A stretch of DNA of 64,000 nucleotides from Ruminococcus flavefaciens (GTDB taxonomy: Bacteria > Bacillota > Clostridia > Oscillospirales > Ruminococcaceae), in NCBI GenBank assembly GCA_023662725.1, contig JAMPIL010000001.1:1381563-1445562 (forward strand). The letters are read 5' to 3'. This document shows positions 18,189 to 40,385 of the stretch, piece after piece. Every line of letters starts with the position of its first letter. The stretch's first letter is position 1. The notes beneath the pieces are model-generated. The model was given only the letters and a program-made list of their open reading frames with translations. It did no database searches and had not been told where the DNA came from. The translations under genes were made by a program, and so were the position numbers.

Positions 18189-18202
18189 GGAAAGGAATTT
18201 TT

Positions 18203-19662: not shown

Positions 19663-19760
19663 ATTGATATAAATTAAAACGAATATTTCTGGCAACATTG
19701 TAAGTATTCGCAAAGGTAAAACCGAACCGAAAAAATAATTAACATTGAAAGGGTGAAACA

Positions 19761-21629
19761 ATGAGCATAAAGTACAGCATAGCAGGCTACTGCCGAATTT
19801 CCGTCGATGAGGAAATGGACAGGGACAATACCTCGATAGAAAACCAGAAGGCTATCATAGCCGACTTTGTTAAACGCAAGTTCCCCGACAGCACGCTTGA
19901 TTTCTATGAGGACCGTGACCGATCGGGATATACGTTTGAACAACGTGAGGGCTATCAGGAGCTGCGGAAGAAAATGCTCCGATTAGAGTACGATATTCTG
20001 ATCGTCAAGGATTTCTCCAGATTTTCCCGACGAAACAGCAAAGGACTTGTGGAGCTTGAGGACTTGCGTGATGCGGGAATGAGAATTATCTCGATTGGCG
20101 ACAGCATAGACTATCCGACCTATGACGACTGGACGGCAATTCAGTTTCGGTTTCTCATAAACGAAATGCCTGTTACCGATACGTCCAAAAAGGTCAAATC
20201 GGTCATAAAACGCCGTCAGGAGGAGGGCAAGTGGATATGCGCCGTGCCCTACGGCTACGTTATGATAAACAACAAGACCATGCAGTTCGAGGTTGACGAG
20301 CCTGCGGCGGAGGTTGTCCGTGATATCTTCGACAAGTACAACAGCGGCTGGGGTTACAAAAAAATCGCCAATTATCTTACGGACAAGCATATTCCCACGC
20401 CTAGAATGTGCGAAAAAATGCGCAGGGAGGCTAAAGGCGAGGAGTGCAAGCGTGAGGTAAAGCAGACGTGGAGTATCATAACCGTCAGCGAGATATTGCA
20501 GAACGATTTCTATATCGGCACGCTCCGTCAGGGTAAGTACAGGCGCAGGAAGATAAACGGCGGAGAGGTCAAGCAGGACGAAACTGACCACATAGTTTTT
20601 GAAAACAATCACACTCCTATTGTCGATTACAAGGTGTTCGCTCTGGCTCAGGAGCAGCTGAAAAAGCGAACGACCTCTCACTATCGGGGAGTAAAAAAGT
20701 ACGACAATGTGTACTCTGGCTATCTTTTCTGCGGAGACTGCGGCTCGCCCATGTTCGCAATGAGCCGTACCGATCTTGCTTCTGCCTACACCTGCGGAAC
20801 CTACCACAAGCGAGGAACAAAGGGCTGTACCTCCCACCACACCAGAGTTGATATGCTGGACGGTCTGCTGAAAAGCTATATCAAAAAGGTGCGTGACAAC
20901 TCCGCAGAGATGATCGAACGCTTGCAGGAGTCCATTGCTAAAGAACAGCATGAAACGAAAAGCAGTCAGTCCACCGTTGATGTGATAAAGGGGCAGATAG
21001 AGGACGCAAAGGCGGAAATGAAAATGCTCACCCGTCAGCAGGCGAGGGACGTTATGAAACACCCCGACCGTGCGGAGATAATCGAGGAGACCTACACCGA
21101 GATGATAGACGAGCTTACTTTGCGTATCGAGGGACTGAAAAATCAGATGCAGCTTGCAGTGGACAAGCACAACACAGTTGTCAGAGTGAACCGCACAGCC
21201 AGAACTGTGCTGGAGATTTTTGATGACATCATTAACAAGCCCTCTCTTGACAAGAACGACCTGAATTTTATAATAGACAAGATTGTGGTTTTTGAAAACA
21301 GAATTGAAATTCATCTCAAAGCGGATATCGACTGTCTGCTGAAATACGGCACGCTTACAGAACAGCAGCTTGTGACAGTCGGAGCAGAGGGAACAGTCGA
21401 AAATTTTAATCAAGGCACTGAGATCGGAAAGTCAGCCGGACAGCTTGCTGATGCCGTCACGGACAGCAGAGGCAGGGTTCTTGGTGTCAAGGTTGTAAGC
21501 AACGTTGACACTGTCAACGTTATCAGTAACGGCGACGCTGTCCTTTTTAACCTATTTGAAAATTCATACTTAATAAATAATAATACCCCATTAAGGGGTA
21601 TTATTATTTATTGGGACAAAATACCATGA
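19761..21629 (+). CDS. Large serine recombinase (integrase)
   Basis: The 622-residue site-specific recombinase has a resolvase catalytic domain (1-150; YCRISVDEE with nucleophile Ser14; IVKDFSRFSRR). The Recombinase domain is about 165-290 (VPYGYVM...GWGYKKIANYLTDKHIPTP). A zinc ribbon follows (about 325-355; CGDCGSPM, CGTYHKRGTKGC), then a long coiled coil (about 375-470). It integrates or excises the element carrying it. The last about 15 codons read straight through an 18-bp palindrome (21572-21612) that belongs to the intergenic repeat family, so the native C-terminus may have been lost. Confidence 0.9.
   Translation: MSIKYSIAGYCRISVDEEMDRDNTSIENQKAIIADFVKRKFPDSTLDFYEDRDRSGYTFEQREGYQELRKKMLRLEYDILIVKDFSRFSRRNSKGLVELEDLRDAGMRIISIGDSIDYPTYDDWTAIQFRFLINEMPVTDTSKKVKSVIKRRQEEGKWICAVPYGYVMINNKTMQFEVDEPAAEVVRDIFDKYNSGWGYKKIANYLTDKHIPTPRMCEKMRREAKGEECKREVKQTWSIITVSEILQNDFYIGTLRQGKYRRRKINGGEVKQDETDHIVFENNHTPIVDYKVFALAQEQLKKRTTSHYRGVKKYDNVYSGYLFCGDCGSPMFAMSRTDLASAYTCGTYHKRGTKGCTSHHTRVDMLDGLLKSYIKKVRDNSAEMIERLQESIAKEQHETKSSQSTVDVIKGQIEDAKAEMKMLTRQQARDVMKHPDRAEIIEETYTEMIDELTLRIEGLKNQMQLAVDKHNTVVRVNRTARTVLEIFDDIINKPSLDKNDLNFIIDKIVVFENRIEIHLKADIDCLLKYGTLTEQQLVTVGAEGTVENFNQGTEIGKSAGQLADAVTDSRGRVLGVKVVSNVDTVNVISNGDAVLFNLFENSYLINNNTPLRGIIIYWDKIP
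21572..21612. repeat. Mosaic repeat, fragment A (central palindrome)
   Basis: 18-bp perfect arms (21572-21589 with 21595-21612) around a 5-base loop, with the family core TACCCC...GGGGTA. Only this module is clear here, and it is read as the 3' codons of the recombinase. It can also act as the transcription terminator. Confidence 0.7.
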
Positions 21630-21710
21630 CGGTTGATGATTCTTTGCCCTAAACAAAAGAATAGTATCGTCATTATACATCCCCGATATGATTAATTTTG
21701 ACTTTAACTC

Positions 21711-21739
21711 TTGATTTAATTACTATAATATGTTATAAT
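21711..21739 (+). promoter_or_regulatory. Promoter of the small helical protein gene
   Basis: TTGATT (21711-21716), 17-base spacer, TATAAT (21734-21739). Confidence 0.65.
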
Positions 21740-21773
21740 ATAGTTATAATAATTTTCTGAAAGAAGGTTCTTT

Positions 21774-21971
21774 ATGGATATTAAAGGCAAAATCGGCGAG
21801 ATCACTGATAAGGTAAAAAACGATAAAGATTTCACAAACAACCTTAAAAATGATCCTATCAAAGCTGTAGAGGGAATTACAGGAATCGACCTTCCCGATG
21901 ATAAAATCAATAAAGCAGTTGATACAGCTAAAGATAAGCTCGGTGACGTGATTGGCAAAATCAAAAAGTAA
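21774..21971 (+). CDS. Small charged helical protein
   Basis: A 65-residue, lysine/aspartate-rich, helix-forming protein. The middle segment DPIKAVEGITGIDLPDDKI is shared by a group of unnamed clostridial small proteins and vaguely recalls Nif11/nitrile-hydratase-leader peptides; that link is weak. It has no signal peptide or membrane helix. GAAGG precedes the ATG, and it has its own promoter. It lies upstream of and in line with the yitT-type gene, with a GAGGCGC/GCGTCTC hairpin (about 21990-22015) between. Function unknown. Confidence 0.6.
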   Translation: MDIKGKIGEITDKVKNDKDFTNNLKNDPIKAVEGITGIDLPDDKINKAVDTAKDKLGDVIGKIKK

Positions 21972-22048
21972 AGCTAACAAGTGCAAAGAGGCGCTTTCCG
22001 CAAGAAGGCGTCTCTTAATTATAGTCTCACCCGACGAAAGGAGTAAAA

Positions 22049-22927
22049 ATGAAAAAAATTTTCGAATCAGTAAAACCATTCAATCTCGTAATGCTTACTG
22101 TCGCCGGAATTATAAATGCTTTCGGGATAACGCTCTTCCTTATGCCGGTAAAACTTTACGACAGCGGAATTTCAGGAACTTCCATGCTTCTTGCACAAGT
22201 AACTCCACAGTGGCTTTCACTTTCGATTTTCCTCATTCTGCTAAACGTTCCACTTTTTCTCTACGGACTGAAAAAACAGGGCAAAGCATTCACATTCTAT
22301 GCGATTTATACTGTTATGATCTACTCGGTAACATCGTGGCTTATAACCGATATTCTTCCGGTCGATGTGAGTCTTGCTTCTCCGCTCGCCGGTACAGATC
22401 TACTTCTTTGCGCTCTCTTCGGCGGAGTTATCTCCGGAACAGGAAGCGGACTTGCTATACGTTTCGGCGGAGCTATGGACGGCATTGAAGTTATGGCGGT
22501 CATTTTTGCCAAACGCCTCGGATTGTCGGTCGGATCATTTGTCATGATATACAATATTATTCTGTACATTATCTGTGGAATGGTGATAAACAGCTGGATT
22601 CTTCCGCTTTACTCAATAGTTACATACTATGCTGCACTAAAAACCATAGACTTTATCGTAGACGGCTTACAACGTTCAAAAGCCGCAATGATAATCACAT
22701 CCAAACCGGATAAAATCTGCAAACAGCTTATGGATGAGTTCGGCTGCGGAGTTACCATTATCGACGCTAAAGGCGGCTTTTCCGGAACAGAACGGAGTGC
22801 GCTGTATTTCGTTGTAAACCGATTTCAGGTCATGCGGATGAAAGATATAGTCCAGAAAATCGATCCTCTTGCATATATAACCCTGAGCGAAGTTGCAGAT
22901 ATTTTTTCAGCTAACCACAGTAAATAA
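22049..22927 (+). CDS. YitT-family membrane protein
   Basis: The 292-residue protein has five to six transmembrane helices in the first 200 residues (DUF161/YitT: GITLFLMPVKLYDSGISGTSML, GSGLAIRFGGAMDGIEV). The cytoplasmic C-terminal DUF2179 domain is about 205-285 (GCGVTIIDAKGGFSGTERSALYFVV). The transport function of the family is not established. The start has GAAAGGAG upstream. The stop codon sits on the first bases of repeat copy B. Confidence 0.85.
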   Translation: MKKIFESVKPFNLVMLTVAGIINAFGITLFLMPVKLYDSGISGTSMLLAQVTPQWLSLSIFLILLNVPLFLYGLKKQGKAFTFYAIYTVMIYSVTSWLITDILPVDVSLASPLAGTDLLLCALFGGVISGTGSGLAIRFGGAMDGIEVMAVIFAKRLGLSVGSFVMIYNIILYIICGMVINSWILPLYSIVTYYAALKTIDFIVDGLQRSKAAMIITSKPDKICKQLMDEFGCGVTIIDAKGGFSGTERSALYFVVNRFQVMRMKDIVQKIDPLAYITLSEVADIFSANHSK

Positions 22928-23110
22928 GGGGAACTCCGTCCCCTTAAGTCTCACCTGTCGGTTCGGTCGGTACTTCTGCTTCCCAGAGGTGTTCGCTGGA
23001 CACCCGCACCCCTGCCAAAGGGACGTACAGTCCCTTTGGAAACCCACAATTAAATAATACCGATACCCCATAAAGGAGTATCGGTATTATTTAGGGTAAA
23101 ACCCAAAGAA
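22926..23110 (+). repeat. Mosaic repeat, copy B
   Basis: Modules in order: AAGGGGA/TCCCCTT hairpin (22926-22944), a spacer shared with copy D (GGTTCGGTCGGT, CTTCTGCT, AGAGGTG), CCAAAGGGA/TCCCTTTGG hairpin (23015-23039), and the central palindrome 23052-23092 with arms AAATAATACCGATACCCC and GGAGTATCGGTATTATTT. It lies in the convergent gap between the YitT and YkgJ genes and starts at the YitT stop codon. Confidence 0.8.
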
Positions 23111-23177
23111 CCGCTGCACTTTGCAGAAAATAACGGCAACCAAATCTCATATCACTTGTCATGAGCAAATATATAAC

Positions 23178-23657
23178 CTACTCTTCCTCGAATATCAGCA
23201 CGGGGTAGCCGTTGTAATACGGCTTGACTATCTCCGGGTGAGCGTCAGCATAACGAAAAATAGTTTCCGCCAGACCTTCTTTGAGGAATTCCGTGAGTTG
23301 TGAAAGCGGGCGGTTATACAGCTCCTCGCAGATGGAAGCTATTGCTATTGCTCTTTTTCCTCCGACCTCCATGATTCGATACGGCCATATATGGCAATCA
23401 AAAGGTTTATCGTCTCCAAGCATACAGCCGTTTTCGGTCAAAGCCGGACAGGAAAAACGCTCATCTCCTTTAAGCTCTCCTGCAAGGAAAGTATATCCTC
23501 CGTCCTTGGGAATAAATTCCGCATCCGGTTTTACTTTCAGGATTTTCTGACGTATCTCGTCGGTAAAAACAGGAGTTTCCCATATATCATCCTTATCGAA
23601 AACGCAGCAAAGCCTGCACTCTGCACAGGAACTTCCGTCCAAAATTTTTTTAAGCAT
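23178..23657 (-). CDS. YkgJ-family cysteine cluster protein
   Basis: The 159-residue protein has the CxxCxxxCC-type zinc/iron-binding cluster (SSCAECRLCCVF, about 9-20) and further cysteines at FSCPAL, NGCML and FDCHIW, as in the YkgJ/CxxCxxCC family. It is cytoplasmic and its function is not firmly known. It is divergent from the GIY-YIG gene with only 33 bases between starts. Confidence 0.8.
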   Translation of the reverse strand: MLKKILDGSSCAECRLCCVFDKDDIWETPVFTDEIRQKILKVKPDAEFIPKDGGYTFLAGELKGDERFSCPALTENGCMLGDDKPFDCHIWPYRIMEVGGKRAIAIASICEELYNRPLSQLTEFLKEGLAETIFRYADAHPEIVKPYYNGYPVLIFEEE

Positions 23658-23690
23658 GGTTTTATCCTTTCTGAATCGGAGAATCGTTTA

Positions 23691-24008
23691 ATGTATTACA
23701 TTTATATAATAAAATGCTCCGGAAACAGGCTGTACACCGGCATAACGACCGATTTAAGCCGTCGGATGAGCGAGCATTTCAGTCAAAGCTCAAAATGCGC
23801 AAAATTCACACGTTCCCACAAAGCCGAATCGCTGGAAGCCTGCTGGAGCGCTGAGAATCGTAGCCTCGCTTCAAAACTAGAGTATAAGATAAAGTCACTG
23901 ACAAAGCCGCAGAAACTCCGTCTGATAAGCGAAACCGGCTCTTTAGAGGAGTTTTTTGGCAATGATGCGAAATTTTACAAGCGTGAATCCACAAATATAG
24001 AAATATGA
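23691..24008 (+). CDS. GIY-YIG domain protein, UPF0213 type
   Basis: The 105-residue single-domain GIY-YIG nuclease-fold protein (MYYIYIIKCSGNRLYTGITTDLSRRMSEH) has the YIYIIKC...LYTGIT core, catalytic-type Arg, and KLEYKIKSL near the C-terminal half, as in the YhbQ/YazA group. These are suspected DNA-repair or processing nucleases. The frame is open far upstream over the YkgJ gene, but the ATG at 23691 gives the standard family N-terminus. Confidence 0.85.
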   Translation: MYYIYIIKCSGNRLYTGITTDLSRRMSEHFSQSSKCAKFTRSHKAESLEACWSAENRSLASKLEYKIKSLTKPQKLRLISETGSLEEFFGNDAKFYKRESTNIEI

Positions 24009-24009
24009 G

Positions 24010-24040
24010 CTGCCGCAAATCATGCGGCAGTTTTTGTTTT
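24010..24040 (+). terminator. Terminator of the GIY-YIG gene
   Basis: CTGCCGC (24010-24016) pairs with GCGGCAG (24024-24030), then TTTTTGTTTT. Confidence 0.85.
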
Positions 24041-24084
24041 AGCAGAATAATTCAAAAATTCTATCCACCTATTCCTGTCAATGA

Positions 24085-24216
24085 TTTATCCTCTTAGGGC
24101 ATTCGCTCTAATAAAATCAAATCCCCTTTATGGAGATTTGATTTTATTAATACCGGGTTTCCAAAGGGATAATATCCCTTTGGCAGAGGGTTTCAGGGAG
24201 ACAGAGTCTCCCTGAG
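24085..24216 (-). repeat. Mosaic repeat, copy C (reverse orientation)
   Basis: Read on the minus strand it gives, in the same order as the other copies, the GGGAGAC/GTCTCCC hairpin, CCAAAGGGATATTATCCCTTTGG, AAACCCGGTATTA, then the central palindrome (24110-24126 with 24132-24148, arms AATAAAATCAAATCCCC, one mismatch) and AGGGC. It lies in the convergent gap between the GIY-YIG gene and tex, ending 2 bases from the tex stop. Confidence 0.8.
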
Positions 24217-24217
24217 A

Positions 24218-26488
24218 TCATTTCTGCTTAATTCTGAAACTGCTGTTGCGGAGTTTGCTTGCATCAAATCCCTTTGGTTTTCTGTTTTCACGCTTCTTTT
24301 CGTTTCTGGGACGGGACTGCTTTTTCTCCTCCTCGTCGTTAAGACGCATGGTGAGGGAAATCCGGCTGCGCTTAACATCCACGTCAATTACACGAACCTT
24401 TACAACTTCTCCTACCTTTACGGCTTCAAGAGGGTGCTTGATGAATCGGTTGCAGATCTGAGAAATATGAACAAGACCGTCTTCATGTACTCCGATGTCA
24501 ACGAAAACTCCGAAATCAATAATGTTGCGGACTGTTCCGACAAGCTCCATACCGGGCTTGAGATCCTTAATTTCCATAACGTCTCCGCTTCTGAGCAGAG
24601 GAGGAGGAAGCTCGTCACGAAGATCACGTCCCGGCTTTTTAAGCTCGCTGATAATGTCTGTAAGCGTAGGAACGCCTATTTCAAGCGAACTGCTGATATT
24701 TTCTATGCCAAGACTGTCCGCTTTTTCCTTTATATCAGCAGCTCCGCCGTTTGAGATGTCGGCAAGAGTAAATCCGCACTCGCTTAAAAGTGCAGACGCC
24801 GCCTTATAGCTTTCGGGATGAACTGCCGTGTTATCGAGAGGATTCTTTCCGTCTCTTACTCTTAAAAATCCGGCGCACTGTTCAAAGGCTTTTTTACCAA
24901 GCTTCGGAACTTTAAGAAGTTCTTTTCTGTCAGTAAATTTACCGTTTTCCTCACGGTATGTCACTATATTTTTCGCTACAGCAGAGTTGATTCCGGCAAT
25001 ATAGGAAAGCAGCGAATGCGAAGCCGTATTAAGGTCAACTCCGACCGAGTTTACGCAGTCCTCGACCACTCCGGAAAGAGCGTCGCTCATACGAGCCTGC
25101 GGCATATCGTGCTGATACTGTCCGACTCCGATAGCTTTCGGATCGATCTTAACAAGCTCCGCAAGCGGATCCTGCAAGCGGCGTGCTATCGAAACTGCGC
25201 TTCTGAGCGAAACATCGTAATCGGGAAATTCCTCGGCGGCAAGCTTGGAAGCGGAATAAACGGACGCTCCGGCTTCGCTTACAACCATATAGCTGACCTT
25301 CTGCGGAATTTCTTTGAGAAGTTCGGCAACAAACGATTCCGTTTCACGGGAAGCCGTACCGTTTCCGATAGAAATTGTCGTAACGTTATGCTTTTCTATA
25401 AGCGAACGGATAGTTCTTTTAGAAGCCTCCATATTTGTTTTCGGTCCGGGAGTACAGTAGACGATGTTTGTATCGAGAACTTTTCCCGTAGAGTCGATAA
25501 CTGCGACCTTACATCCGGTTCTGTAGCCCGGATCGAGTCCGAGGATAACGCTGTTTTTCAAAGGCGACTGGAGAAGAAGCTGACGTAGATTTGAAGCAAA
25601 TACCTTGATAGATTCTTCAGCAGCATTGGCAGTCATCTCGGACCGTATTTCACGTTCGATAGACGGGAAAATGAGTCTTTTATAGCTGTCCTCGGCGGCG
25701 GCACGGACAAGTTCGCCGCAGGCATTGTTGTTTTTGATATATTTTTCGAGGATTATTCCCGTTGCGGCAGCTTCATCCAGACTTATCGAAACCTTGAGGA
25801 AATTCTCTTTCTCACCCCTGTCGAGAGCGAGAACACGGTGATTTGCAATTTTTGAAATCGGCTCGGAATATTCATAATAATTGGTGTAAACGCTTTCTGC
25901 CTCGGGATCGGACGCTTTTGAAGCTATTTCGCCCTTTTCGTTCGCCAGACTGCGGAGCTTCTTTCTTATGCCTGCGTCATCGGAGATATCCTCGGCAATA
26001 ATATCCATAGCTCCCTGAATAGCCGATTTAACATCGGGAACGTTCTTTTCCTCGTTCACAAAAGCTTCAGCTTCTTTTTCAGGCTCGGTCGAGTTATCCT
26101 GCTCCATGATAAGAACAGCGAGCGGTTCAAGTCCGGCTTCTCTTGCAACGCTTGCACGAGTTTTTCTCTTCGGCTTGAACGGACGATAAATATCTTCTAC
26201 CTCAACAAGAGTCACAGCAGCGCTGATAGCTACCTCTATTTCCGGAGTCATCTTCTCCTGCTCCGTAATGGAATTTGTGATCTCTTCCTTACGTTTTTCA
26301 AGATTTCGGAGATAAGTAAGTCTGTCGTTAAGCTCACGAAGAACCTGATCGTCGAGCGAACCTGTAAGTTCTTTACGGTAACGTGCAATAAACGGTATAG
26401 TTTTTCCGTCGTCAATAAGATCTATTGTATTATCGACCTGTTCCTGTTTTAATCCGAATTCTTTTGCAATTGTTTTATTGATATCCAT
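24218..26488 (-). CDS. tex: Tex, S1-domain transcription accessory protein
   Basis: The 756-residue Tex/YhgF protein has an N-terminal helical HTH-like region (INKTIAKEFGLKQEQV; TIPFIARYRKELTGSLDD). A YqgF-like RNase-H fold (about 315-440) carries ILGLDPGYRTGCKVAVID. Helix-hairpin-helix repeats (about 480-560; GVDLNTASHSLLSYIAGINSAVAKNIV) and a C-terminal S1 RNA-binding domain (about 635-710; GMELVGTVRNIIDFGVFVDIG) follow. It binds nucleic acids and influences transcription and RNA turnover. Length is normal for the family. An alpha/beta hydrolase gene lies 21 bases upstream, so they may be co-transcribed. Confidence 0.93.
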   Translation of the reverse strand: MDINKTIAKEFGLKQEQVDNTIDLIDDGKTIPFIARYRKELTGSLDDQVLRELNDRLTYLRNLEKRKEEITNSITEQEKMTPEIEVAISAAVTLVEVEDIYRPFKPKRKTRASVAREAGLEPLAVLIMEQDNSTEPEKEAEAFVNEEKNVPDVKSAIQGAMDIIAEDISDDAGIRKKLRSLANEKGEIASKASDPEAESVYTNYYEYSEPISKIANHRVLALDRGEKENFLKVSISLDEAAATGIILEKYIKNNNACGELVRAAAEDSYKRLIFPSIEREIRSEMTANAAEESIKVFASNLRQLLLQSPLKNSVILGLDPGYRTGCKVAVIDSTGKVLDTNIVYCTPGPKTNMEASKRTIRSLIEKHNVTTISIGNGTASRETESFVAELLKEIPQKVSYMVVSEAGASVYSASKLAAEEFPDYDVSLRSAVSIARRLQDPLAELVKIDPKAIGVGQYQHDMPQARMSDALSGVVEDCVNSVGVDLNTASHSLLSYIAGINSAVAKNIVTYREENGKFTDRKELLKVPKLGKKAFEQCAGFLRVRDGKNPLDNTAVHPESYKAASALLSECGFTLADISNGGAADIKEKADSLGIENISSSLEIGVPTLTDIISELKKPGRDLRDELPPPLLRSGDVMEIKDLKPGMELVGTVRNIIDFGVFVDIGVHEDGLVHISQICNRFIKHPLEAVKVGEVVKVRVIDVDVKRSRISLTMRLNDEEEKKQSRPRNEKKRENRKPKGFDASKLRNSSFRIKQK

Positions 26489-26509
26489 TTTATATATCCT
26501 TTCATTTTG

Positions 26510-27508
26510 TCATATATTTTCTTCGTCAGAGGCTGTTTCTTCGGGAGTTTCCTCAATAATCTCTGCGACTGAATCGTTATAGCGGTCTATCCATGAAAAA
26601 AGCGTTTTCGCTATATCTTTCCATACATTTATGCTGTTTTTTTCGTTGAGAATTTCATGACGCATACCCTCAAAAAGCCTGTGGGAGATACTTTCATAGC
26701 CAACTTTTTCAAGTGAGAAAATAGCGGAAAAAAACTTCTTTTCAGAAATAAAGCATGGATCGTCCTTTCCGGAAACGAATCTTACCGGAAGCGACGGATT
26801 TTTAAGTTCCCAGCCGTCCGACGAATATGCACGGCGTATAAGACCGAGCATTTCCTCATATTCGTTAAGCGTAGCCTTAAAGCTGCAAAGCGGATCGCTA
26901 TTAAATTCCGCAACAACCTCCGAATCGCTGCACCGCCATGAATTTTCAGGCTGTTCAAAGCTTTTTCCGAGAGTACTATTAATAGTATCGTAAATTTTTT
27001 CGCTTCTGAAACGGCTTCCCGGTTTTTTTGATGAAACCGCATGAATACATCTTGTAATAGGCGAAAATCTGCTGTAACACGGTGTTCCGAGCAGAACAAG
27101 TCCGTTTAAGCTGTCATCGTGTTCTTTTATATAGCACCTTGCACCGACAGAACCCATTCCCTGCGCCATCATAAAAATCGGAAGCTGAGAATATGTTTCT
27201 CTTATAATTTTATTCAGCTGAGCAATATCGCTTACAAAACCGTCTCCGCCGTTTCTGAACATAAATCCGAGGTCGTCGGGGGTACAGATACTTTTCCCGT
27301 GACCTCTGCAATCGTGGATAACGGTAATAAAACCTTCTTCAGCGAGATAATCCATAAAGGGATAATAACGTTCCTTATGCTCGTTCAAGCCGTGAACGAT
27401 CTGAACAACGCCGCATACATTTCCAACCGGAACGGCAATCACGGCAGAGATCACCAGTTCATCGAATGAAGAGGTAAATTCAAACTCCTTTAAATCCGCA
27501 TTCAGCAT
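26510..27508 (-). CDS. Alpha/beta hydrolase, monoacylglycerol-lipase type
   Basis: The 332-residue serine hydrolase of the Hydrolase_4/lysophospholipase group begins with QIVHGLNEHKERYYPFMDYLAEEGF and DCRGHGKS, as in monoglyceride lipases. The nucleophile elbow reads AQGMGS, so the usual GHSMG is altered: Gly-Met-Gly-Ser instead of His-Ser-Met-Gly. This raises doubt about catalytic serine placement. SGKDDPCF and the C-terminal GMRHEILNE supply the Asp and His of the triad. It is cytoplasmic with no signal peptide. Substrate unknown. Confidence 0.75.
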   Translation of the reverse strand: MLNADLKEFEFTSSFDELVISAVIAVPVGNVCGVVQIVHGLNEHKERYYPFMDYLAEEGFITVIHDCRGHGKSICTPDDLGFMFRNGGDGFVSDIAQLNKIIRETYSQLPIFMMAQGMGSVGARCYIKEHDDSLNGLVLLGTPCYSRFSPITRCIHAVSSKKPGSRFRSEKIYDTINSTLGKSFEQPENSWRCSDSEVVAEFNSDPLCSFKATLNEYEEMLGLIRRAYSSDGWELKNPSLPVRFVSGKDDPCFISEKKFFSAIFSLEKVGYESISHRLFEGMRHEILNEKNSINVWKDIAKTLFSWIDRYNDSVAEIIEETPEETASDEENI

Positions 27509-27591
27509 AAAAATCCTCCTATTTAAAAGGGTATTATTAATATTATACCATAAATTTCAAATTAAATCAAGAGAACGATAGCAGTTTTCAC

Positions 27592-27880
27592 GGTAACAGC
27601 ATTTACTTTTCCTGTTAGTTGTTAAGGGGACACTATCCCCTTAAGTCTCACCTTTCGGTTCGGTCGGTGCTTCTGCTCCGCAGAGGTGTCCACTGGACAC
27701 CCTCACCCCCTTCCAAAGGGATATTATCCCTTTGGAAACCCAGTATTAATAATTTCAAATCCAAATAAGAGGTTTGAAATTATTAGGGCAGGATGCCCAG
27801 ACGGAAATAACTCCATTCAGCAAGGGATTCAAGACACAAAGTTCACTTGATAAACATAACAAAAAGTAAATGCTGTTACC
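27592..27880 (+). repeat. Mosaic repeat, copy D, with 19-bp terminal inverted repeats
   Basis: A complete-looking 289-bp element. Perfect terminal inverted repeats are at 27592-27610 (GGTAACAGCATTTACTTTT) and 27862-27880. Inside are TTAAGGGGA/TCCCCTTAA, the GGTTCGGTCGG/CTTCTGCT spacer, CCAAAGGGATATTATCCCTTTGG, a central palindrome with arms AATAATTTCAAATCC (27748-27762) and GGTTTGAAATTATT (27771-27784), and AGGGCAGGATGCCC. It fills the gap between the hydrolase start and the ogt stop. Confidence 0.85.
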
Positions 27881-27892
27881 CTGAGCAGTTTT

Positions 27893-28354: not shown

Positions 28355-28418
28355 ATAGTCCTCGCAAATATTTTATTGAATCTTATTATACATTAATTAT
28401 GCCGTAATTGTCAACAAT

Positions 28419-29888
28419 TCAGTCCGTATGAAATGTTACGTCTATGATTTTTACATTGCCTCTTCTGCTGTTTCGCATTTCATTTACTACAACGATTTTG
28501 TCAACGAATTTCAGCAGAAATAATCGCTTCTCCGAATCATTAAGCATCTCCCAGTTTTCCTTAAAATTTTTGATAATATCCTCCTGCTCGATCACTAATT
28601 CTTCTTTCATAGCCGAAAGTTCATCAAGCTGATCGAGAGTTTTGATTTTCTCGGATTCAATATATTCCTTTAGCTGAATATACTGCTCAAAATTCAGTTT
28701 GTTTTCCGCATACGAGCCTATAATTTCCCTTTCCTTGCACTCAAGAGTTTTCAGAAAACGATTCAGATTTTGCATCTCCTTATTTTCTTTTATATCGTTC
28801 ATTTCCTTCGGTTGAACTTCGTCCGCTGCGGAAAAATCTTCGATCTGCTCAAGATAATTCAGGAATGCCTTTTCAGCATTTTTATGCAGTATGTTACTGG
28901 CATTGCAAGTCTTTCGTCTGTATCCGCCGCAGCGGTAGCCTCCCCTGAACACTTTTTCGCCGTTTTTATTTTTAGTGCTGTCGTTATGAGTTACCAAACC
29001 TGCTCCGCATTTTCCGCAGTATAAAATACCGGAAAAATAATTTTCCTCCTTTGGACGTTTTGTATAGCTCTTTGTAGAAATCCTGCCTATGAGTTCCTGA
29101 GCTTCATTATACAGTTCTTCGGAAATAATTGGCTCATGATTTCCTTTGACCTCAAAATTGCGCTTCTCATCCTTTGTCGCATATCTGACATTGCCTATGT
29201 AATTGCAGTTTGTAAGCATATTTTTTACGCTTCTTGCCTGCCAGACTGAATTTTCTTTCGTTGGAATATTTCTCTCATTAAGACTTTTTGCTATATCAAG
29301 AAACGACATCCCCCTGTTTACGAACATCTCAAAAACTTCCTTTACAATAACCGCCTCTTTTTTATTGATTTTCTGTAATTTATCTCCTCGCCACTTATCG
29401 TAACCGTAGCTTGCCGTTCTGGTACAGAGACTATAGCCCTCTTTCACCTTTCTTTCAAAACCCAATTTGGTTCTTTCGACTATATTTTCCCGTTCGAATT
29501 CAGCAAAAATGCCGATTATTTTTATAAACATTCTTCCTGAGGGCGTTTGCGTATCTATACTTTCACAAAGCGAATTAAATGCGCATCCGTATTCGTTAAA
29601 CAGATTTATCAAATATATTAAATCTGACGTACTTCTTGTAAGACGGTCTATCTTAAAAACCAGAACATTTTTTATATGTCCGTTTTTTATGTCCTGGATC
29701 AGCTCTTTTATCTGCGGACGGCATTCAATACTCTTTCCGCTTATTCCCTCGTCGGAATAAATCCGATATATAGTCCAATCCTTTATTTTTGCGTAGTCCT
29801 TCAGCTTTTCCTCCTGCGCCCTTATCGAAAAACCCTCTTTTGCCTGTTCCTCGGTCGATACCCTGACGTAGATTCCGGTTGACGGCAT
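28419..29888 (-). CDS. Serine recombinase
   Basis: The 489-residue recombinase has a resolvase domain (1-150; GIYVRVSTEEQA with nucleophile Ser11; VFKIDRLTRSTSDL; EFERENIVERTK). The Recombinase domain is about 160-260 (TASYGYDKW; NYIGNVRYATKDE). A zinc ribbon follows (LYCGKCGAGLV, YRCGGYRRKTCNA), and a coiled C-terminus. It is likely the integrase of an element. A 39-residue companion ORF lies directly upstream. On the other side of that ORF the feoB coding sequence begins in mid-gene. Confidence 0.9.
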   Translation of the reverse strand: MPSTGIYVRVSTEEQAKEGFSIRAQEEKLKDYAKIKDWTIYRIYSDEGISGKSIECRPQIKELIQDIKNGHIKNVLVFKIDRLTRSTSDLIYLINLFNEYGCAFNSLCESIDTQTPSGRMFIKIIGIFAEFERENIVERTKLGFERKVKEGYSLCTRTASYGYDKWRGDKLQKINKKEAVIVKEVFEMFVNRGMSFLDIAKSLNERNIPTKENSVWQARSVKNMLTNCNYIGNVRYATKDEKRNFEVKGNHEPIISEELYNEAQELIGRISTKSYTKRPKEENYFSGILYCGKCGAGLVTHNDSTKNKNGEKVFRGGYRCGGYRRKTCNASNILHKNAEKAFLNYLEQIEDFSAADEVQPKEMNDIKENKEMQNLNRFLKTLECKEREIIGSYAENKLNFEQYIQLKEYIESEKIKTLDQLDELSAMKEELVIEQEDIIKNFKENWEMLNDSEKRLFLLKFVDKIVVVNEMRNSRRGNVKIIDVTFHTD

Positions 29889-29903
29889 GATAAATCGCTC
29901 CTA

Positions 29904-30023: not shown

Positions 30024-30058
30024 ATCTCACCTCCAACATTCTGATAAAATTATATTAA

Positions 30059-31060: not shown

Positions 31061-31063
31061 AAT

Positions 31064-31089
31064 AAAAAAACCTGTAGAAAATTACAGGT
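31064..31089 (-). terminator. Terminator of the GH13 gene
   Basis: CCTGTA (31071-31076) pairs with TACAGG (31083-31088); on the minus strand it is followed by seven T. It lies between the converging GH13 gene and feoB fragment. Confidence 0.8.
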
Positions 31090-31203
31090 CAAGAAAAATA
31101 AAATGAATTTAGAGGGGGAATTGGGGGATTATTTAATCCTCTATAAGTATAGCCTCGCTTTCTTAAAATAATCTTAAAAGAGTATCTTTACCAGAGAATT
31201 TTT

Positions 31204-33087: not shown

Positions 33088-33129
33088 CAAAATACCTCCA
33101 AATAAAATTATTGAAAAACCGCCGCTGAA

Positions 33130-33318
33130 ACAGCAGTATTGGTCTTTATCGGCTATTATATAGAGAACTCTGTCCCCCATTCCCCCTGCCAGAGAGTGAA
33201 TACAACCTTTGGAAACTCGGTATTGATTAGGGCGATGCCCCTAAGAGAAATCATCTTTTTGACAGAGAGTATGAGGGAAAAATCCCCCTACAATAGCAGA
33301 CAAAGTCAATACTGCTGT
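33130..33318 (+). repeat. Mosaic repeat, copy E (deletion derivative)
   Basis: 12-bp perfect terminal inverted repeats ACAGCAGTATTG (33130-33141) and CAATACTGCTGT (33307-33318). Inside, CTGTCCCCC, CCCCCTGCC, ACCTTTGGAAACTCGGTATT and AGGGCGATGCCC remain, but the central palindrome is missing. GGTATT joins directly to GATTAGGGC. It ends 1 base from the stop codon of the membrane-bound XRE gene. Confidence 0.75.
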
Positions 33319-33319
33319 C

Positions 33320-34309
33320 CTAACGCCGATCTCTGAAAACAAGTCCCACAGCGGCTGAAATTCCTGCAAGACCGATAATAACTGCCGAAACTACAGCTGT
33401 AGAAACGTCATCGCTTATTGTAATCGAAAAATCCACATTCGACGGCAGAAAATGCAGAGCAAGTTTTTCCGCCGATAAGAGCCATACGCCAAGCATTGCA
33501 AGAACGGCGGACGATTTGAGAAAAATATTTATCTTAGCATATCTTATAACTGCAAAAATTGCCCATACCAATACCAGAACGCACGCTGCGGCGACCATTC
33601 CCGTAACGAAGCTTTCCCAGACTCCGTATTTCAGCGTTCCATAGGCAACAACCACCAATATCATAGCCGTATCGGCAGCCATACATATAAGCGATTTGTT
33701 ATTTCCGATATATTTACTTATAAAATCACATCGAATAATAAACGGCAGAAAAACGATGCACAGTCCCAGTGTAACGGACAAAAATGCCATAACAAACCAG
33801 TCTCCGCCGCTGTAAACATTTCCCGAAAGCAGAAGAAGAGTAAGCGAAACGTAAGAGCTTGCCAGCGTGAGTATTCCCCTGTTTTTAGCCGTAAATGTCG
33901 GAACATTCAGCAATGAAGCCGACAACATCAGCGACGTTAGAAGAATACAAAACTTTGATGTATTATGTTCATTAAGAATAAAAATTATAAAGCACGGTAT
34001 AATTGCCGATAAATAGCCCAAAGCCAGAATCGCATTATATATTGCAATAAATAATTTATACTTTTTTGCCATTTTCACAATTTTTCGCTGATTTTCGTCA
34101 TCGCTTGCCGTACAAAGCTCATGCTCTGTAATATTGAGAGCGCTGCATATCTCGGAAATCATGGTAATATCGGGATAGGATATACCTCTCTCCCACTTGC
34201 TGACAGCAGATTCAGTAACGTAAAGTCTTTCAGCAAGAACTTTCTGAGATATCCCCGCCTCTTTCCGTTTGGACTGAATGAACTTTCCAAAAGTAATTTT
34301 ATCCTGCAT
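33320..34309 (-). CDS. XRE regulator with C-terminal membrane domain
   Basis: The 329-residue protein has an N-terminal helix-turn-helix (about 6-62; FGKFIQSKRKEAGISQKVLAERLYVTESAVSKWERG). About seven hydrophobic segments follow from residue 85 to the end. Such membrane-tethered XRE proteins are common in Firmicutes and may sense envelope or membrane signals. The ATG at 34309 has GAGGTGA 7 bases upstream; the frame extends 17 codons further without support. It is monocistronic, flanked by repeat copies E and F. Confidence 0.8.
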   Translation of the reverse strand: MQDKITFGKFIQSKRKEAGISQKVLAERLYVTESAVSKWERGISYPDITMISEICSALNITEHELCTASDDENQRKIVKMAKKYKLFIAIYNAILALGYLSAIIPCFIIFILNEHNTSKFCILLTSLMLSASLLNVPTFTAKNRGILTLASSYVSLTLLLLSGNVYSGGDWFVMAFLSVTLGLCIVFLPFIIRCDFISKYIGNNKSLICMAADTAMILVVVAYGTLKYGVWESFVTGMVAAACVLVLVWAIFAVIRYAKINIFLKSSAVLAMLGVWLLSAEKLALHFLPSNVDFSITISDDVSTAVVSAVIIGLAGISAAVGLVFRDRR

Positions 34310-34484
34310 ATTTTTCACCTCAAATAAATTTGGTACACTGCAATGTTTTCCATAAGCCAATTATAAATAATGCTTAGAGAAATGTCAACATTTTTCAGTG
34401 AAAACAGGGGTGGATTGGCAGTCGAGTAACGTAAATACGTCGTTTCCGGCAATATAACAGTAACAAAAACAGGCGGCAATGTCC

Positions 34485-34709
34485 TGACATTATTTACTTT
34501 CTCTGTAATTATAAGGGGACACTGTCCCCTTATACCCCTGCCAAAGGGTTATATAACCCTTTGGAAACCCAGTATTATATTATTACAAATACCCCATAAA
34601 GGGGTATTTGTAATAATTAGAACAGGTATTCTATAGAGTTAAATTTCCTTTAACAGCGAATAGAAAAGACAGGTGTCCCCCTTATAATTACAGAAAAAGC
34701 AAATACTGC
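34485..34709 (+). repeat. Mosaic repeat, copy F, with about 30-bp imperfect terminal repeats
   Basis: The left end (34485-34522) and the reverse complement of the right end (34674-34709) share TTTCTCTGTAATTATAAGGGG-like sequence with few mismatches. Inside are AAGGGGACACTGTCCCCTT, CCAAAGGGTTATATAACCCTTTGG, AAACCCAGTATTA, and a perfect 17-bp central palindrome (34579-34595 with 34601-34617, ATTATTACAAATACCCC). Confidence 0.85.
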
Positions 34710-34741
34710 CAAGCAACGCCAGCCCATTTGAAATATCTGAA

Positions 34742-37150: not shown

Positions 37151-37270
37151 ATAAAATCTCCATTCCGCCGCCTGATGCGGCAACATTACTGTGCGTATAT
37201 TGTCCCAAACTCTATACAAACGGTCTATCGCCAATTATCACAGGACAAATCTACTAACGGTATTATTTTA

Positions 37271-37299
37271 ATTATACTATGTTTCAGATTTTTTTGCAA
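37271..37299 (-). promoter_or_regulatory. Promoter of glgP
   Basis: On the minus strand, TTGCAA (37299-37294), 17-base spacer, TATAAT (37276-37271). The leader is about 115 bases. Confidence 0.65.
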
Positions 37300-37509
37300 C
37301 TGTATATTTCAACAAATATTTATCCACTTAATTTACATATTGCGAAAAAACATCAAATTTGCGTTATTTTATGAACAAGTTCGCTTGTTGCGTATTGTGC
37401 AATATGACAAACCGTAAATAATTACTGTCTCAATTTTGTTGAATACTAACAAAATAGTGTGTATTAGTTATATTCCATACATTTTTAAAAAATAAAACAT
37501 GAAAAACAT

Positions 37510-37538
37510 TTGAAATTTCTCTCAATATGTGGTATAAT
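37510..37538 (+). promoter_or_regulatory. Promoter with long leader before the membrane-protein gene
   Basis: TTGAAA (37510-37515), 17-base spacer, TATAAT (37533-37538). Confidence 0.65.
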
Positions 37539-37698
37539 AAATATAACCTCCTGTAAAGTAGCCGGATACGGCTCTGAATCAATCGTTGAACAATAGTTTC
37601 ACCGCCACTATATTATTTGAAAAAGCTTTTGAGTTATTCATACAGGGGAAAAAGTGTAGAATAAAACAGATCGACAAAATGAAAAGGAATGATTATTT

Positions 37699-38889
37699 AT
37701 GGAAAAGAAAAAGAGATTCTCGCTACTTAAAATCCTGATTACAATTATTTGTATTGTTTTCATCATTATTTCACTTTTAATAAATATTACATTTTCAGGC
37801 GGAAAAACTCCGCATATTTTCGGAAGATATATTTACATCGTCGGCGAAGGAGATAACCTTGGCAACAATGTTACATCCGGAGCTGCGCTTATCGCCAAAG
37901 AAATAAAAAACGAATCGGTTTTAGCGCGTGATATTGTTCTCTGTTACCCTGCCGACTCTCCCGATACGCTTAGTCTGCGCAGTATTTATGACGTTGTTAC
38001 AAGCGAGGACGGAATAGAAAAATTTTCAACAGCAAATGCCTCAAGCGTTGACGAAAACACGATCACAAAAGATAAGATCGTCGCTCTTTGTACAGGATAT
38101 CCCGAAAGCAAAGAGCTGGGAAAATTCATAAAATTCACGAGGAACATTAAGGGAATTCTTCTCGAACTTCTGCTCCCTTGCGTCATTCTTGTTATCTTCC
38201 TTATAGTTAAGATCGCTTCTTCAAAAAACGCTGCCGAAGACGATGAGATCGAATACGATTTCTATGAGTACGAAAACAACGGCAGCGATTCCAGAGTAAA
38301 TTCTCATGCAAAAACCAATTCTCCTCTTTTTGAGAATATTCAGGAAATACAGCCAAGCGATGAGCTTGAACGCAAAAAAATGTCTATAGTTGAAAACTTC
38401 AGCCAGAAAAAAGTCAATCCCGATTCTCCTTATCAGAAGGAAAAAGAACGTACAATGCAGTTTAAAGCACAGCGCAGTGCGGAATCTTCTTTTGCTGCAA
38501 GAAATGTCGGCGGAACTTCCTCAACTGCTCCTACAGCGGACGCTTTAAGAGAGGAAATGCTCCGAAAAACTGCTGAAGCTGAGCGTACAGGAACTTTCTC
38601 CATCAAGAGCGCAGGCTCAAAGCAGCCGACAGAATCGGTTTCCGACATTACAGGTATTCTTCCGAAGGCACAGCTTACTGAAATGTCAAGAAACGATATT
38701 CCGAAAACAACTCCTCTCAGAAGTCAGTCTGCACAGCCGCAGGCAAATAAAGCACCGAAAAAGAGCAGTTCGCCCGATATTTCCGATATTATCAAGCGTA
38801 CCGATTCTTCTGCAAGAAAAAAATCCGCCGCAGATATGTCTGTTGACGATCTTCTCAAGCTTATTGAGGATGAGAAAAAGAAATTCTGA
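37699..38889 (+). CDS. Two-helix membrane protein with disordered tail
   Basis: A 396-residue protein: N-terminal membrane helix (about 9-31), extracytoplasmic part (about 32-150), second helix (about 152-172, LLELLLPCVILVIFLIVKI), and a long low-complexity, serine/lysine-rich cytoplasmic tail ending DLLKLIEDEKKKF. The extracytoplasmic part (HIFGRYIYIVGEGDN...SGAALIAKEI) is spaced like SipW-type signal peptidases but lacks the catalytic SGSMEP serine. It could be a non-catalytic relative; this is inference. AAAAGGA precedes the ATG. Confidence 0.55.
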   Translation: MEKKKRFSLLKILITIICIVFIIISLLINITFSGGKTPHIFGRYIYIVGEGDNLGNNVTSGAALIAKEIKNESVLARDIVLCYPADSPDTLSLRSIYDVVTSEDGIEKFSTANASSVDENTITKDKIVALCTGYPESKELGKFIKFTRNIKGILLELLLPCVILVIFLIVKIASSKNAAEDDEIEYDFYEYENNGSDSRVNSHAKTNSPLFENIQEIQPSDELERKKMSIVENFSQKKVNPDSPYQKEKERTMQFKAQRSAESSFAARNVGGTSSTAPTADALREEMLRKTAEAERTGTFSIKSAGSKQPTESVSDITGILPKAQLTEMSRNDIPKTTPLRSQSAQPQANKAPKKSSSPDISDIIKRTDSSARKKSAADMSVDDLLKLIEDEKKKF

Positions 38890-38908
38890 GATATCTATAG
38901 CAATATTA

Positions 38909-38946
38909 AAGGCTGCCGCACCCCAAAGTGCAGCAGCCTTTTTTTA
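38909..38946 (+). terminator. Terminator after the two-helix membrane protein
   Basis: AAGGCTGC (38909-38916) pairs with GCAGCCTT (38933-38940), followed by six T. On the minus strand it may also serve the converging glycosyltransferase gene. Confidence 0.88.
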
Positions 38947-38950
38947 CTGT

Positions 38951-39970
38951 TTATAACTCATTATTGCCAATGTTTGTTCCATTTATATTCTCGTTATTAT
39001 GAAATTCCACACCAAGTTCGTTCAGAAAATCCGCCACGATAAATCGTGGTCTTTGCTTGACCTCTGCATATATCTTTCCGACATACTCTCCGATTATACC
39101 AAGACAGAAAAGCTGCAACCCGCCGATCAGCCAGATCGAACATATTGTGCTTGACCAGCCAAGCTCGGAAAATCCGGCGAATTTTGCAATAAATGCCCAT
39201 ATAAACGCCAGAATGCTTATCATTGACATTATAAAGCCAAGACTCGTTATCAGTTTAAGCGGCTTTGTGCTGAAAGAAGTTATTCCATTTATGGCAAACG
39301 AAAGCATCTTCCTAAGCGGATATTTGCTTTCTCCGGCAAGCCTTTCACGGCGTTCGTAATAAACGCTGCAGCTTTTAAAGCCTATCAGCGGAACCATTCC
39401 CCTCAGAAACAGATTCACCTCTTTGAATTCAGAAAGTTCCTGCAAAACTCTTTTGCTCATAAGACGGAAATCAGCATGGTTGTACACAACATCCGCTCCC
39501 ATCGCTTTCATGAACTTATAAAACCTTTCGGCAGTGAATTTCTTGAAAAACGTATCGGTTTTTCTTGCGCTTCTTACACCATAAACGACTTGATTTCCCT
39601 CATAATATTTCTGCATCATCTTGTCAATAGCGTTAATATCGTCCTGAAGATCGGCGTCCATGGTGATACAGACATCGCATATATCCTTAACGGTCATAAG
39701 TCCGGCAAGCACAGCATTCTGATGACCGCTGTTGCGGGCAAGATTGATTCCGGAAAAAAACTCCGGTTCATCGCAGTGAAGCTTTTCAATAATGCTCCAG
39801 GTTTCGTCACTTGAACCGTCGTTGACAAAAACTATACGGCTTTGCGGCGAAATAAGACTGCTTTCTATAAGAAAACGGTACTTTTCTTTAAGCTGTCTTG
39901 CAGTTTCAGGAAGAACCTCCTGCTCGTTATAGCATGGAACTATCATATATAAAATCTCTGGCGGACGCAT
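38951..39970 (-). CDS. Family 2 glycosyltransferase, GtrB/DPM type
   Basis: The 339-residue membrane glycosyltransferase has a GT-A domain (1-235; IVPCYNEQEVLPET, FVNDGSSDETW, MDADLQDD, and QVVYGVRSARKTD). Two C-terminal transmembrane helices follow (about 245-310). Members transfer sugars to polyprenyl phosphate or to wall/LPS-like polymers. It stands alone, with repeat copy G and then the YfhO gene upstream. YfhO-type proteins need lipid-linked sugar donors of the kind GtrB-type enzymes make, so the two may act together; that link is inference. Confidence 0.88.
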   Translation of the reverse strand: MRPPEILYMIVPCYNEQEVLPETARQLKEKYRFLIESSLISPQSRIVFVNDGSSDETWSIIEKLHCDEPEFFSGINLARNSGHQNAVLAGLMTVKDICDVCITMDADLQDDINAIDKMMQKYYEGNQVVYGVRSARKTDTFFKKFTAERFYKFMKAMGADVVYNHADFRLMSKRVLQELSEFKEVNLFLRGMVPLIGFKSCSVYYERRERLAGESKYPLRKMLSFAINGITSFSTKPLKLITSLGFIMSMISILAFIWAFIAKFAGFSELGWSSTICSIWLIGGLQLFCLGIIGEYVGKIYAEVKQRPRFIVADFLNELGVEFHNNENINGTNIGNNEL

Positions 39971-40034
39971 TTTTCAACCTCTTTTAACAATTCTTTCTTA
40001 AAGTATATCATATCCCCCGAAATATGTCAACTGC

Positions 40035-40303
40035 TTATAAGGGGACGCTCAGGAAAATCAATTTTTACACTTTCCGTGGTTATTCAAGGGAGGCTCTGCC
40101 TCCCTTATACCCTCCGCCAAAGGGATATTCTCCCAACGGTCGCCCCTCCCCTTTGTCAGCCTTGCTGACATTTCCCCACACTGTGGGGAATCGCCCTTTG
40201 GAATCCCGGTATTAATCATACAGAATCCCCATAAAGGGACTTCTGTATGATTAGGGCAATGCCCATAGTTAGGATACCATTTGGCAAAAGTTAAAGTAAA
40301 CAG
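40035..40303 (+). repeat. Mosaic repeat, copy G, with a nested insertion
   Basis: Modules are AAGGGAGGC/GCCTCCCTT, then CCAAAGGGATATTCTCCC whose right half is displaced by about 55 bases containing two further hairpins (GTCAGCCTTGCTGAC and TCCCCACACTGTGGGGA). CCCTTTGGAATCCCGGTATTA, the central palindrome (arms AATCATACAGAA 40214-40225 and TTCTGTATGATT 40241-40252), and AGGGCAATGCCC follow. The left end is degraded; the right end near 40303 resembles the terminal repeats (GATACTGTTTACTTT on the minus strand). Confidence 0.75.
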
Positions 40304-40385
40304 TATCTATTTAAAATACCAAAAATTATAAGAATTTATTTCCCTGAGGTGATAGCATCCCTTAAATAATTATTGTAATTGTAAC

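What the first reader, a model, noticed from the sequence alone, without database searches (positions are those of the whole stretch)
21572..40303. Mosaic palindromic repeat family in seven gaps
Copies at 21572, 22926, 24085 (reverse), 27592, 33130, 34485 and 40035 share an ordered set of modules: AAGGGGA-type hairpin, optional GGTTCGGTCGG spacer, CCAAAGGGATATTATCCCTTTGG, AAACCCAGTATTA, a central palindrome, and AGGGCNNTGCCC. Copies D, E and F have terminal inverted repeats (19, 12 and about 30 bp), as in MITEs. Several begin or end within 0-2 bases of a stop codon. No matching transposase is in the window.
Basis: seen in the sequence. Interest (0 to 1): 0.7.

Follow-up and report, generated by a model that had tools for sequence, protein, structure and literature searches.

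The report
Nested hairpin repeats between bacterial genes
A Ruminococcus genome carries a large family of short, self-folding DNA repeats between its genes; a close relative has repeats at most of the same spots that could be compared, but often flipped or apparently swapped for different ones, so the spots seem to persist while their contents turn over fast.

Summary
The seven copies belong to a genome-wide family: 92 core-pattern hits in the own genome, none for the reversed control, 0-188 hits across 125 genus genomes. Anatomy: outer arms around hairpins H1-H5, with optional three-hairpin modules X and Y. H3 differs between copies, yet its arms pair at 97.5% of variable positions (53% with arms swapped between copies) without G.U excess, so pairing looks DNA-level. 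Against a sister species (aligned blocks mostly 90-95% identical), 17 of 23 resolvable full copies have a full copy at the same place (about 20% expected), but 8 of 17 lie inverted and 10 of 17 are not clearly the same element. Module Y has with/without pairs inside hairpin loops; one whole element sits in the loop of a terminator-like hairpin that lacks it in a relative. 'Copy A' is half of an element split by an 18.6-kb serine-recombinase island. MITE-like, but no regular target duplication and no partner transposase was found; RAYT/IS200 is unlikely. Best reading: a non-autonomous mosaic repeat family turning over by nested insertion, in-place inversion and replacement. New variant of a known kind.

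The parts
2950..2968 (+). 5' remnant (left arm of H1, ..TATAAAGGGGAC) of the element whose other half is copy A
   Evidence: The sister species G050 has one uninterrupted element here; in the window the match stops at GGGGAC.
2969..21533 (+). island of about 18.6 kb, absent from G050 at this place, integrated within H1 of this copy; carries an NgoFVII-like restriction system and a large serine recombinase at its right end
   Evidence: No G050 counterpart between window 2968 and 21686 in the aligned stretches; Pfam; junction sequences.
21534..21690 (+). copy A: 3' half of the split element (H1 right arm, decayed H2, intact H3 and tail)
   Evidence: Profile hit 21570-21685, E 1.9e-6; junction.
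22925..23150 (+). copy B: H1 22925-22946, module X about 22947-23014, H2 23015-23039, AAACCCACAATTA 23040-23052, H3 23053-23091, tail
   Evidence: Sequence; profile hit 22982-23147, E 2e-27.
24021..24217 (-). copy C: complete, without X or Y; orthologous to the G050 copy with the same orientation and nearly the same H3
   Evidence: Profile hit E 1.2e-39; G050 comparison B 86584.
27588..27884 (+). copy D: outer arms GGTAACAGCATTTACTTTT..AAAAGTAAATGCTGTTACC, H1, X, H2, H3, H4, tail
   Evidence: Inverted repeat I5; single-strand DNA fold -68.6 kcal/mol, z -12.7.
33111..33337 (+). copy E: decayed, H3 missing; in G050 the same site holds an element with H3 in the opposite orientation
   Evidence: I14; (B 95718).
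34485..34711 (+). copy F: complete, 34-nt outer arms; in G050 the same element (identical H3 arms and loop) lies inverted between its flanks and carries Y in H1
   Evidence: I6; fold z -10.3; (B 97068).
40035..40349 (+). copy G: H1, H2 with module Y inserted in its loop (about 40131-40192), H3, H4, tail
   Evidence: Sequence; profile hit E 6.6e-33; Y hit B:102694.

Best explanation
This is a non-autonomous, MITE-like family of nested palindromic elements, usually about 200-320 bp. SHOWN: the better-preserved copies have an outer inverted repeat enclosing several hairpins (H1 to H5); small three-hairpin modules (X, Y) come and go, Y often inside the loops of H1 and H2; copies are mostly intergenic with no fixed direction relative to genes; copy number is patchy between species. 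Between two sister species most comparable sites are shared, but the element at a site is often inverted or not recognisably the same copy. INFERRED: sites were occupied in the common ancestor and have since turned over by (i) in-place inversion of the stretch between the outer arms, (ii) insertion of a copy or module into a hairpin loop followed by loss of older parts, and (iii) replacement by recombination between dispersed copies, which share H1, H2 and AAACCC. Because the ends are inverted repeats, a donor fits in either direction, which would explain the near-random orientation. Arms are kept complementary at the DNA level, most plausibly by polymerase template switching between arms, a process described to homogenise arms and invert spacers. 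New sites are presumably founded by a transposase acting in trans, not identified. No benefit to the host is needed; effects on transcription ends are possible side effects.
For: Genome-wide family and patchiness. Orthology with G050: of 23 resolvable full G000 copies (27 in all), 17 have a full copy at the same site (9 same, 8 inverted), 4 have only other modules or partial copies, 2 have none; background 54 copies per 272 non-divergent spacers, P(>=17 of 23)=3e-8. By H3 or H4-H5 similarity, 7 of 17 sites keep the same element (at or above the 99th percentile of 820 non-orthologous pairs: 5 same way round, 2 inverted, F being the clear case); the other 10 fall below it (4 same, 6 inverted). 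In two of the seven (A 40341, A 21274) H3 differs at several positions on both arms. With/without pairs for Y in the H2 loop (B 5089) and in both H1 and H2 (A 40475). Whole element in the loop of a terminator-like hairpin: G119 filled, G081 without it. H3: 97.5% paired against 53.4% for swapped arms; inner mismatches GT 7, AC 17. Loop ATAAA 15 times and its reverse complement TTTAT 4 times. Orientation in co-directional spacers 23 sense, 19 antisense; 58 of 63 copies intergenic. Template switching homogenises arms and inverts spacers: PMC8604942, abstract and passages seen.
Against: No transposase or constant target duplication was found, so the founding step is unproven. Independent insertion in both species at preferred sites could imitate replacement; the 20% background treats non-divergent spacers as equal targets. 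Three of the 10 'other' sites have tails between the 98th and 99th percentile (A 16010, B 35108, B 55201), so they may be old diverged orthologues, and E (B 95718) has no H3 to compare. In three content-conserved pairs (A 33540, B 4922, B 86584) the H3 difference is one-armed, not homogenised. Spacers inverted in PMC8604942 were up to 5 bp; here they would be some 200 bp. An automatic test of complementary flanks around Y gave only 1 of 31 at the 99% background level; its loop placement rests on reading contexts by eye. Orientation was called from the better strand of a partly symmetric profile. G050 is one assembly (a MAG), so some inverted calls could be assembly errors.
Confidence: 0.6

Rival explanations
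1. Ordinary MITEs: each copy was inserted by a transposase of an insertion sequence with matching ends; shared sites are hot spots hit independently in both species, in random orientation.
For: Inverted-repeat ends of two classes; random orientation; a composite G050-only insertion with TIR-like ends and an 8-bp direct repeat CGGATATA against a site without it in G000 (read by eye); 14 G050 copies with near-identical H3.
Against: No constant target duplication at class-1 ends (read by eye). The class-2 end pattern (up to 3 mismatches, 34 hits against 17 control hits) gave no facing pair 0.6-5 kb apart that could hold an autonomous element. Site sharing (17 of 23) far exceeds the 20% occupancy. 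At some sites the outer parts match while the inner part differs (A 63495, B 51312).
Confidence: 0.25
2. REP/BIME-like elements mobilised by a RAYT (Y1 tyrosine) or IS200/IS605-type transposase acting on hairpins.
For: Hairpin-rich, extragenic, mosaic; two Y1_Tnp matches in G000.
Against: No Y1_Tnp match at E<=0.001 in the genomes with most copies, G050 (188) and G078 (176), nor in G072, G124, G119, G123 or G065; of these, G078, G072, G124 and G065 are only 85-87% complete.
Confidence: 0.04
3. A structured regulatory RNA or dedicated transcription terminator or 3'-end stabiliser under selection at each site.
For: Covarying stems; extreme folding energy (z -10 and -13); many copies close to gene ends; at B 3224 the sister species has a plain terminator-like hairpin at the place of the element.
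Against: No Rfam match; no G.U excess on the strand tested (GT 7, AC 17); orientation to genes random (23:19) and often reversed between sister species; no pattern hit in 70 of 125 genus genomes, drafts included.
Confidence: 0.08

Closest known systems
BOX, RUP and SPRITE repeats of Streptococcus pneumoniae (PMC3049150, passages seen)
   Same: High-copy interspersed repeats; BOX is modular with optional inner modules; predicted stem-loops; elements inserted into one another; variable length at orthologous sites; thought to be moved in trans.
   Different: No sequence relation was tested. BOX varies by the number of boxB units; here hairpin modules nest, H3 differs copy by copy, and orthologous sites hold inverted or different copies. 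TSDs are reported for BOX and RUP; none constant here.
Bacterial MITEs in general (review PMC10969869, passages seen)
   Same: Short, inverted-repeat ends, high copy, strong secondary structure.
   Different: No partner insertion sequence and no constant target duplication found; contents of shared sites turn over.
Repetitive hairpin-forming or double-hairpin elements of mitochondrial DNA (PMC2800124, abstract and section list seen; PMC4478555 and others in the search listing)
   Same: Hairpin elements in spacers, scattered between relatives; no transposase known to me (recalled).
   Different: Organelle genomes and smaller elements (size recalled); homology neither tested nor expected.
REP/BIME with RAYT (PMC2817692, search listing and start of abstract)
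   Same: Extragenic palindromes arranged as a mosaic.
   Different: No RAYT/Y1 match in the genomes with most copies; units are larger and nested (size of REP recalled).

Membership tests
MITE | terminal inverted repeats | tested here: met
   D, E and F have 31-44 nt outer arms; 26 of 102 copies exceed the 95% null, which is itself inflated by ends shared between copies; the other 76 do not.
MITE | target site duplication of constant length | tested here: inconclusive
   One composite insertion with an 8-bp direct repeat; about a 14-bp direct repeat at B 615; none seen by eye around the class-1 copies.
MITE | partner transposase or insertion sequence with the same ends | tested here: inconclusive
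   Class-2 end pattern in the own genome gave no facing pair 0.6-5 kb apart; class-1 ends were not searched genome-wide; only PF01797 and PF07508 were searched among transposase and recombinase families.
MITE | many copies, patchy between relatives, with/without sites | tested here: met
   (55 of 125 genomes with a hit, 0-188 hits).
REP/BIME with RAYT | Y1 tyrosine transposase in genomes with the repeats | tested here: not met
   No PF01797 match at E<=0.001 in G050, G078, G072, G124, G119, G123 or G065; G000 itself has two.
BOX element | boxA/boxB/boxC sequences | not tested
   Only the architecture was compared, from passages of PMC3049150.
structured RNA family (Rfam) | match to a described covariance model | tested here: not met
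   Window at gathering scores: three tRNAs only. Nine copy loci at E<=1: one SRP RNA beside a copy and seven matches below their gathering scores.
structured RNA family (Rfam) | compensated stems with G.U bias on the transcribed strand | tested here: not met
   GT 7, AC 17 among inner mismatches of 1366 pairs, binomial p 0.06.

The most novel reading that the evidence does not exclude
The family spreads and renews itself mainly without its own transposase: hairpins are the substrate, and replication template switching or recombination at hairpin loops inverts, swaps and nests elements at long-lived genomic slots, so that 'hairpin loop' is both the target and the vehicle of mobility.
Probability: 0.2. 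Interest if true: 0.8.

Novelty: new variant of a known kind. Interest (0 to 1): 0.55.

Why it matters
Bacterial intergenic repeats are usually read as inert MITE fossils. Here two sister species act as a natural experiment: sites persist while contents flip, differ and nest, which can be tested in strains and in E. coli plasmid assays. It would tie repeat turnover to DNA hairpins, bear on how perfect palindromes stay perfect while changing sequence, and offer one way in which non-coding DNA between conserved genes diverges quickly. Copies also lie at rearrangement ends, and one was the landing site of a restriction-system island.

Tried and rejected
Rfam gave no match to the element. RAYT/IS200 partner: disfavoured by absence of a match in the high-copy genomes. 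Large serine recombinases as the family's mobiliser: the one at 19761-21629 belongs to an island inserted into a copy; in the 30 loci returned (of 143 PF07508 matches in ten genomes) the core profile hit only three, partially (L224, L230, L233), so no general link was seen. Autonomous element via class-2 ends: none seen. 'Direct repeats' that I first saw beside D and E proved to be extended inverted repeats; in some other copies the extended arms look like divergent promoters. The automatic arm-complementarity test around Y was uninformative (1 of 31), partly because the Y profile takes in part of the right arm. Contexts read by eye: 13 of 31 in the H2 loop, 6 in the H1 loop, 2 in a V hairpin, 5 between an H1-like left arm and an H2-like right arm, 5 other. 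RNA gene reading: disfavoured by orientation and mismatch pattern. Phage and plasmid collections, queried with copy D: a module-X stretch only, in two Ruminococcus phages (67 nt of 291, 84%); no plasmid match. One similarity script failed and was rewritten (then 59); an early BLAST script found no input (repeated). The first orthology table counted both strands of the palindromic profile and was replaced. The tally merges two meanings of 'none' (2 without anchors, 4 without family sequence); I separated them by its row list.

Literature: searches (open-access library only) showed no description of this family; a stem-loop survey (PMC2267715, passages) does not mention Ruminococcus. Subscription papers were not searched.
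Full report
WHERE. The window is the end of contig C11 (1,381,563-1,445,562) of a 3.1-Mb genome. Its glycogen phosphorylase is 98% identical to that of a Ruminococcus MAG from roe deer, RGIG4067 (L009). Its six listed DNA blocks match the window stretch at 87-93%, so the window is from a close but different Ruminococcus species.

OBSERVATION. Core pattern CCCTTTGGAAACCCNNNATTA with up to two mismatches: 92 hits in the own genome, none for the reversed pattern; 55 of 125 genus genomes have at least one, the highest being G050 188, G078 176, own 92, G072 88, G124 85; 70 have none. The reversed pattern gave one hit in each of three other genomes. At family level, the H2 pattern followed by AANCCC occurs in 26 of 297 genomes and 21 of 126 genera, never in the reversed control. 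So H2-AANCCC is a scattered motif of the family; whether the full element goes with it outside the genus was not examined.

ANATOMY. Left to right: outer arm (class 2: AGGGTAACAGCATTTACTTTT; class 1: CAATGYCRWCAACTTAAG); H1 GGGGAC..GTCCCC; optional X; CCCCTG; H2 CCAAAGGG..CCCTTTGG with optional Y in its loop; AAACCCRGTATTA; H3, a long palindrome; H4 GGGC..TGCCC; H5 CTCTTT..AAAGAG; and the other outer arm. Single-strand DNA folding of F and D gives a closed multi-branched tree: -53.1 kcal/mol, z -10.3, and -68.6, z -12.7, with none of 200 shuffles as stable.

H3. Of 102 copies examined (one, from L011, was left out), 78 have a good H3 stem (49 G000, 29 G050), with 1366 pairs. Positions 4-15 pair in 97.5% of cells; with the left arm of one copy set against the right arm of another (3242 draws), 53.4%. 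In the 47 of 54 seed copies with a good stem, positions 4 to 15 each show three or four Watson-Crick pair types. Inner mismatches are GT 7, AC 17 (p 0.06), so there is no sign of the G.U intermediates expected if the plus-strand RNA were selected. The loop ATAAA is commonest (15), and its reverse complement TTTAT occurs 4 times.

SISTER-SPECIES COMPARISON. G000 C11:183,010-261,990 and 1,319,000-1,445,562 were compared with stretches of G050 C19, C28 and C27; aligned blocks are 82-97% identical, mostly 90-95%. Of 27 full G000 copies (profile span at least 120), 23 could be placed between unique anchors (3 at inverted junctions and 1 without anchors were set aside): 17 have a full copy in G050, 9 in the same direction and 8 inverted; 4 have only other modules or partial copies; 2 have none. 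One of those two keeps a remnant of H1 (A 44521); the other has a plain terminator-like hairpin at the place (B 3224). In reverse, of 31 full G050 copies, 22 were resolvable: 16 full, 2 partial, 4 none. With 54 copies per 272 non-divergent spacers, chance sharing of 17 of 23 has probability 3e-8, taking spacers as equal targets.

CONTENT. Set against 820 non-orthologous pairs, H3 similarity reaches the 99th percentile at 6 of 17 shared sites, and H4-H5 similarity adds one (A 40341), so 7 keep the same element: 5 the same way round and 2 inverted. F is the clearest inversion: same H3, homologous tail (97.7th percentile), reversed between flanks. A 21274, the other, is a nearly symmetric element. 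At A 40341 and A 21274 H3 differs on both arms; at A 33540, B 4922 and B 86584 it differs on one arm; at B 31330 and F the arms are identical. The other 10 sites (4 same, 6 inverted) fall below the 99th percentile; A 16010, B 35108 and B 55201 have tails between the 98th and 99th, so are undecided, and E (B 95718) has lost H3, so its H3 score means nothing.

NESTING. Y has a with/without pair in the H2 loop (B 5089) and appears in both H1 and H2 at A 40475 in G050, in neither in G000. At A 63495 a class-1 element lies within class-2 arms in G000, where G050 has a class-2 element (read by eye). In G119 a whole element sits in the loop of a terminator-like hairpin after glgP (ACGGGCGG..CCGCCCGT); G081 has that hairpin without it. 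A G050-only composite at A 48893 has an 8-bp direct repeat.

GENES. 58 of 63 copies with a profile span of at least 100 (both species) lie between ORFs of 70 aa or more: 42 in co-directional, 12 in convergent and 4 in divergent spacers; 23 sense and 19 antisense to the upstream gene. Copies B and D stand at the ends of a segment (window 23,191-27,644) that is inverted in G050. All seven in-contig junctions of this kind have a family hit, some partial and some shared between junctions, at the junction or within 350 bp in one of the genomes; the chance level was not computed.

MECHANISM. Shown: modularity, covarying H3 arms, shared sites, inverted and differing contents, Y in loops, one insertion in a terminator-like loop. 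Inferred: that sites are ancestral; that differing contents are replacements; that inversion and arm homogenisation come from template switching (described for inverted repeats in yeast, with bacterial work cited there, PMC8604942, passages) or from recombination; and that a transposase in trans founds new sites. The nearest bacterial precedent seen is pneumococcal BOX/RUP/SPRITE, which insert into one another, BOX being modular (PMC3049150, passages).

VERDICT. A real, recently active-looking repeat family; a new variant of a known kind (mosaic, MITE-like bacterial repeats). Its fast turnover at shared sites is the interesting part.

Noticed in passing
window 2969-21533: Integrated island of about 18.6 kb with a large serine recombinase and an NgoFVII-like restriction system, absent from the sister species at this place and lying inside a family copy.
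   Followed up: partly
window 33320-34309: HTH-domain gene flanked by copies E and F. In the rows that I could see the alpha-amylase-like gene and glgP of other genomes are 28-577 bp apart, except L009 (same arrangement as the window) and two rows with 1.2-kb gaps whose content was not read.
   Followed up: partly
G050 C19/C28/C27 (A 57213, B 54092, B 49397, B 41989, B 9986, A 76147): Other inverted-repeat elements of about 160 bp, present in G050 and cleanly absent in G000, some with short direct repeats at the ends (such as TTTAAA-like and TTAAG, by eye): separate MITE-like families.
   Followed up: no
L009 10202-10579 (window position about 30071 lacks it): Two other inverted-repeat elements side by side, one (ends ATACTAATC..GATTAGTAT) carrying a module-Y-like stretch: Y is shared between different element types.
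   Followed up: partly
window 23191-27644: Segment inverted in G050; its ends coincide with family copies B and D.
   Followed up: partly
PV036433.1 38343-38411 and PV036441.1 27763-27831: Module-X-like stretch in two Ruminococcus phage records.
   Followed up: no
window 28419-29888: Second large serine recombinase gene, also found in the matching part of G050 contig C27.
   Followed up: no
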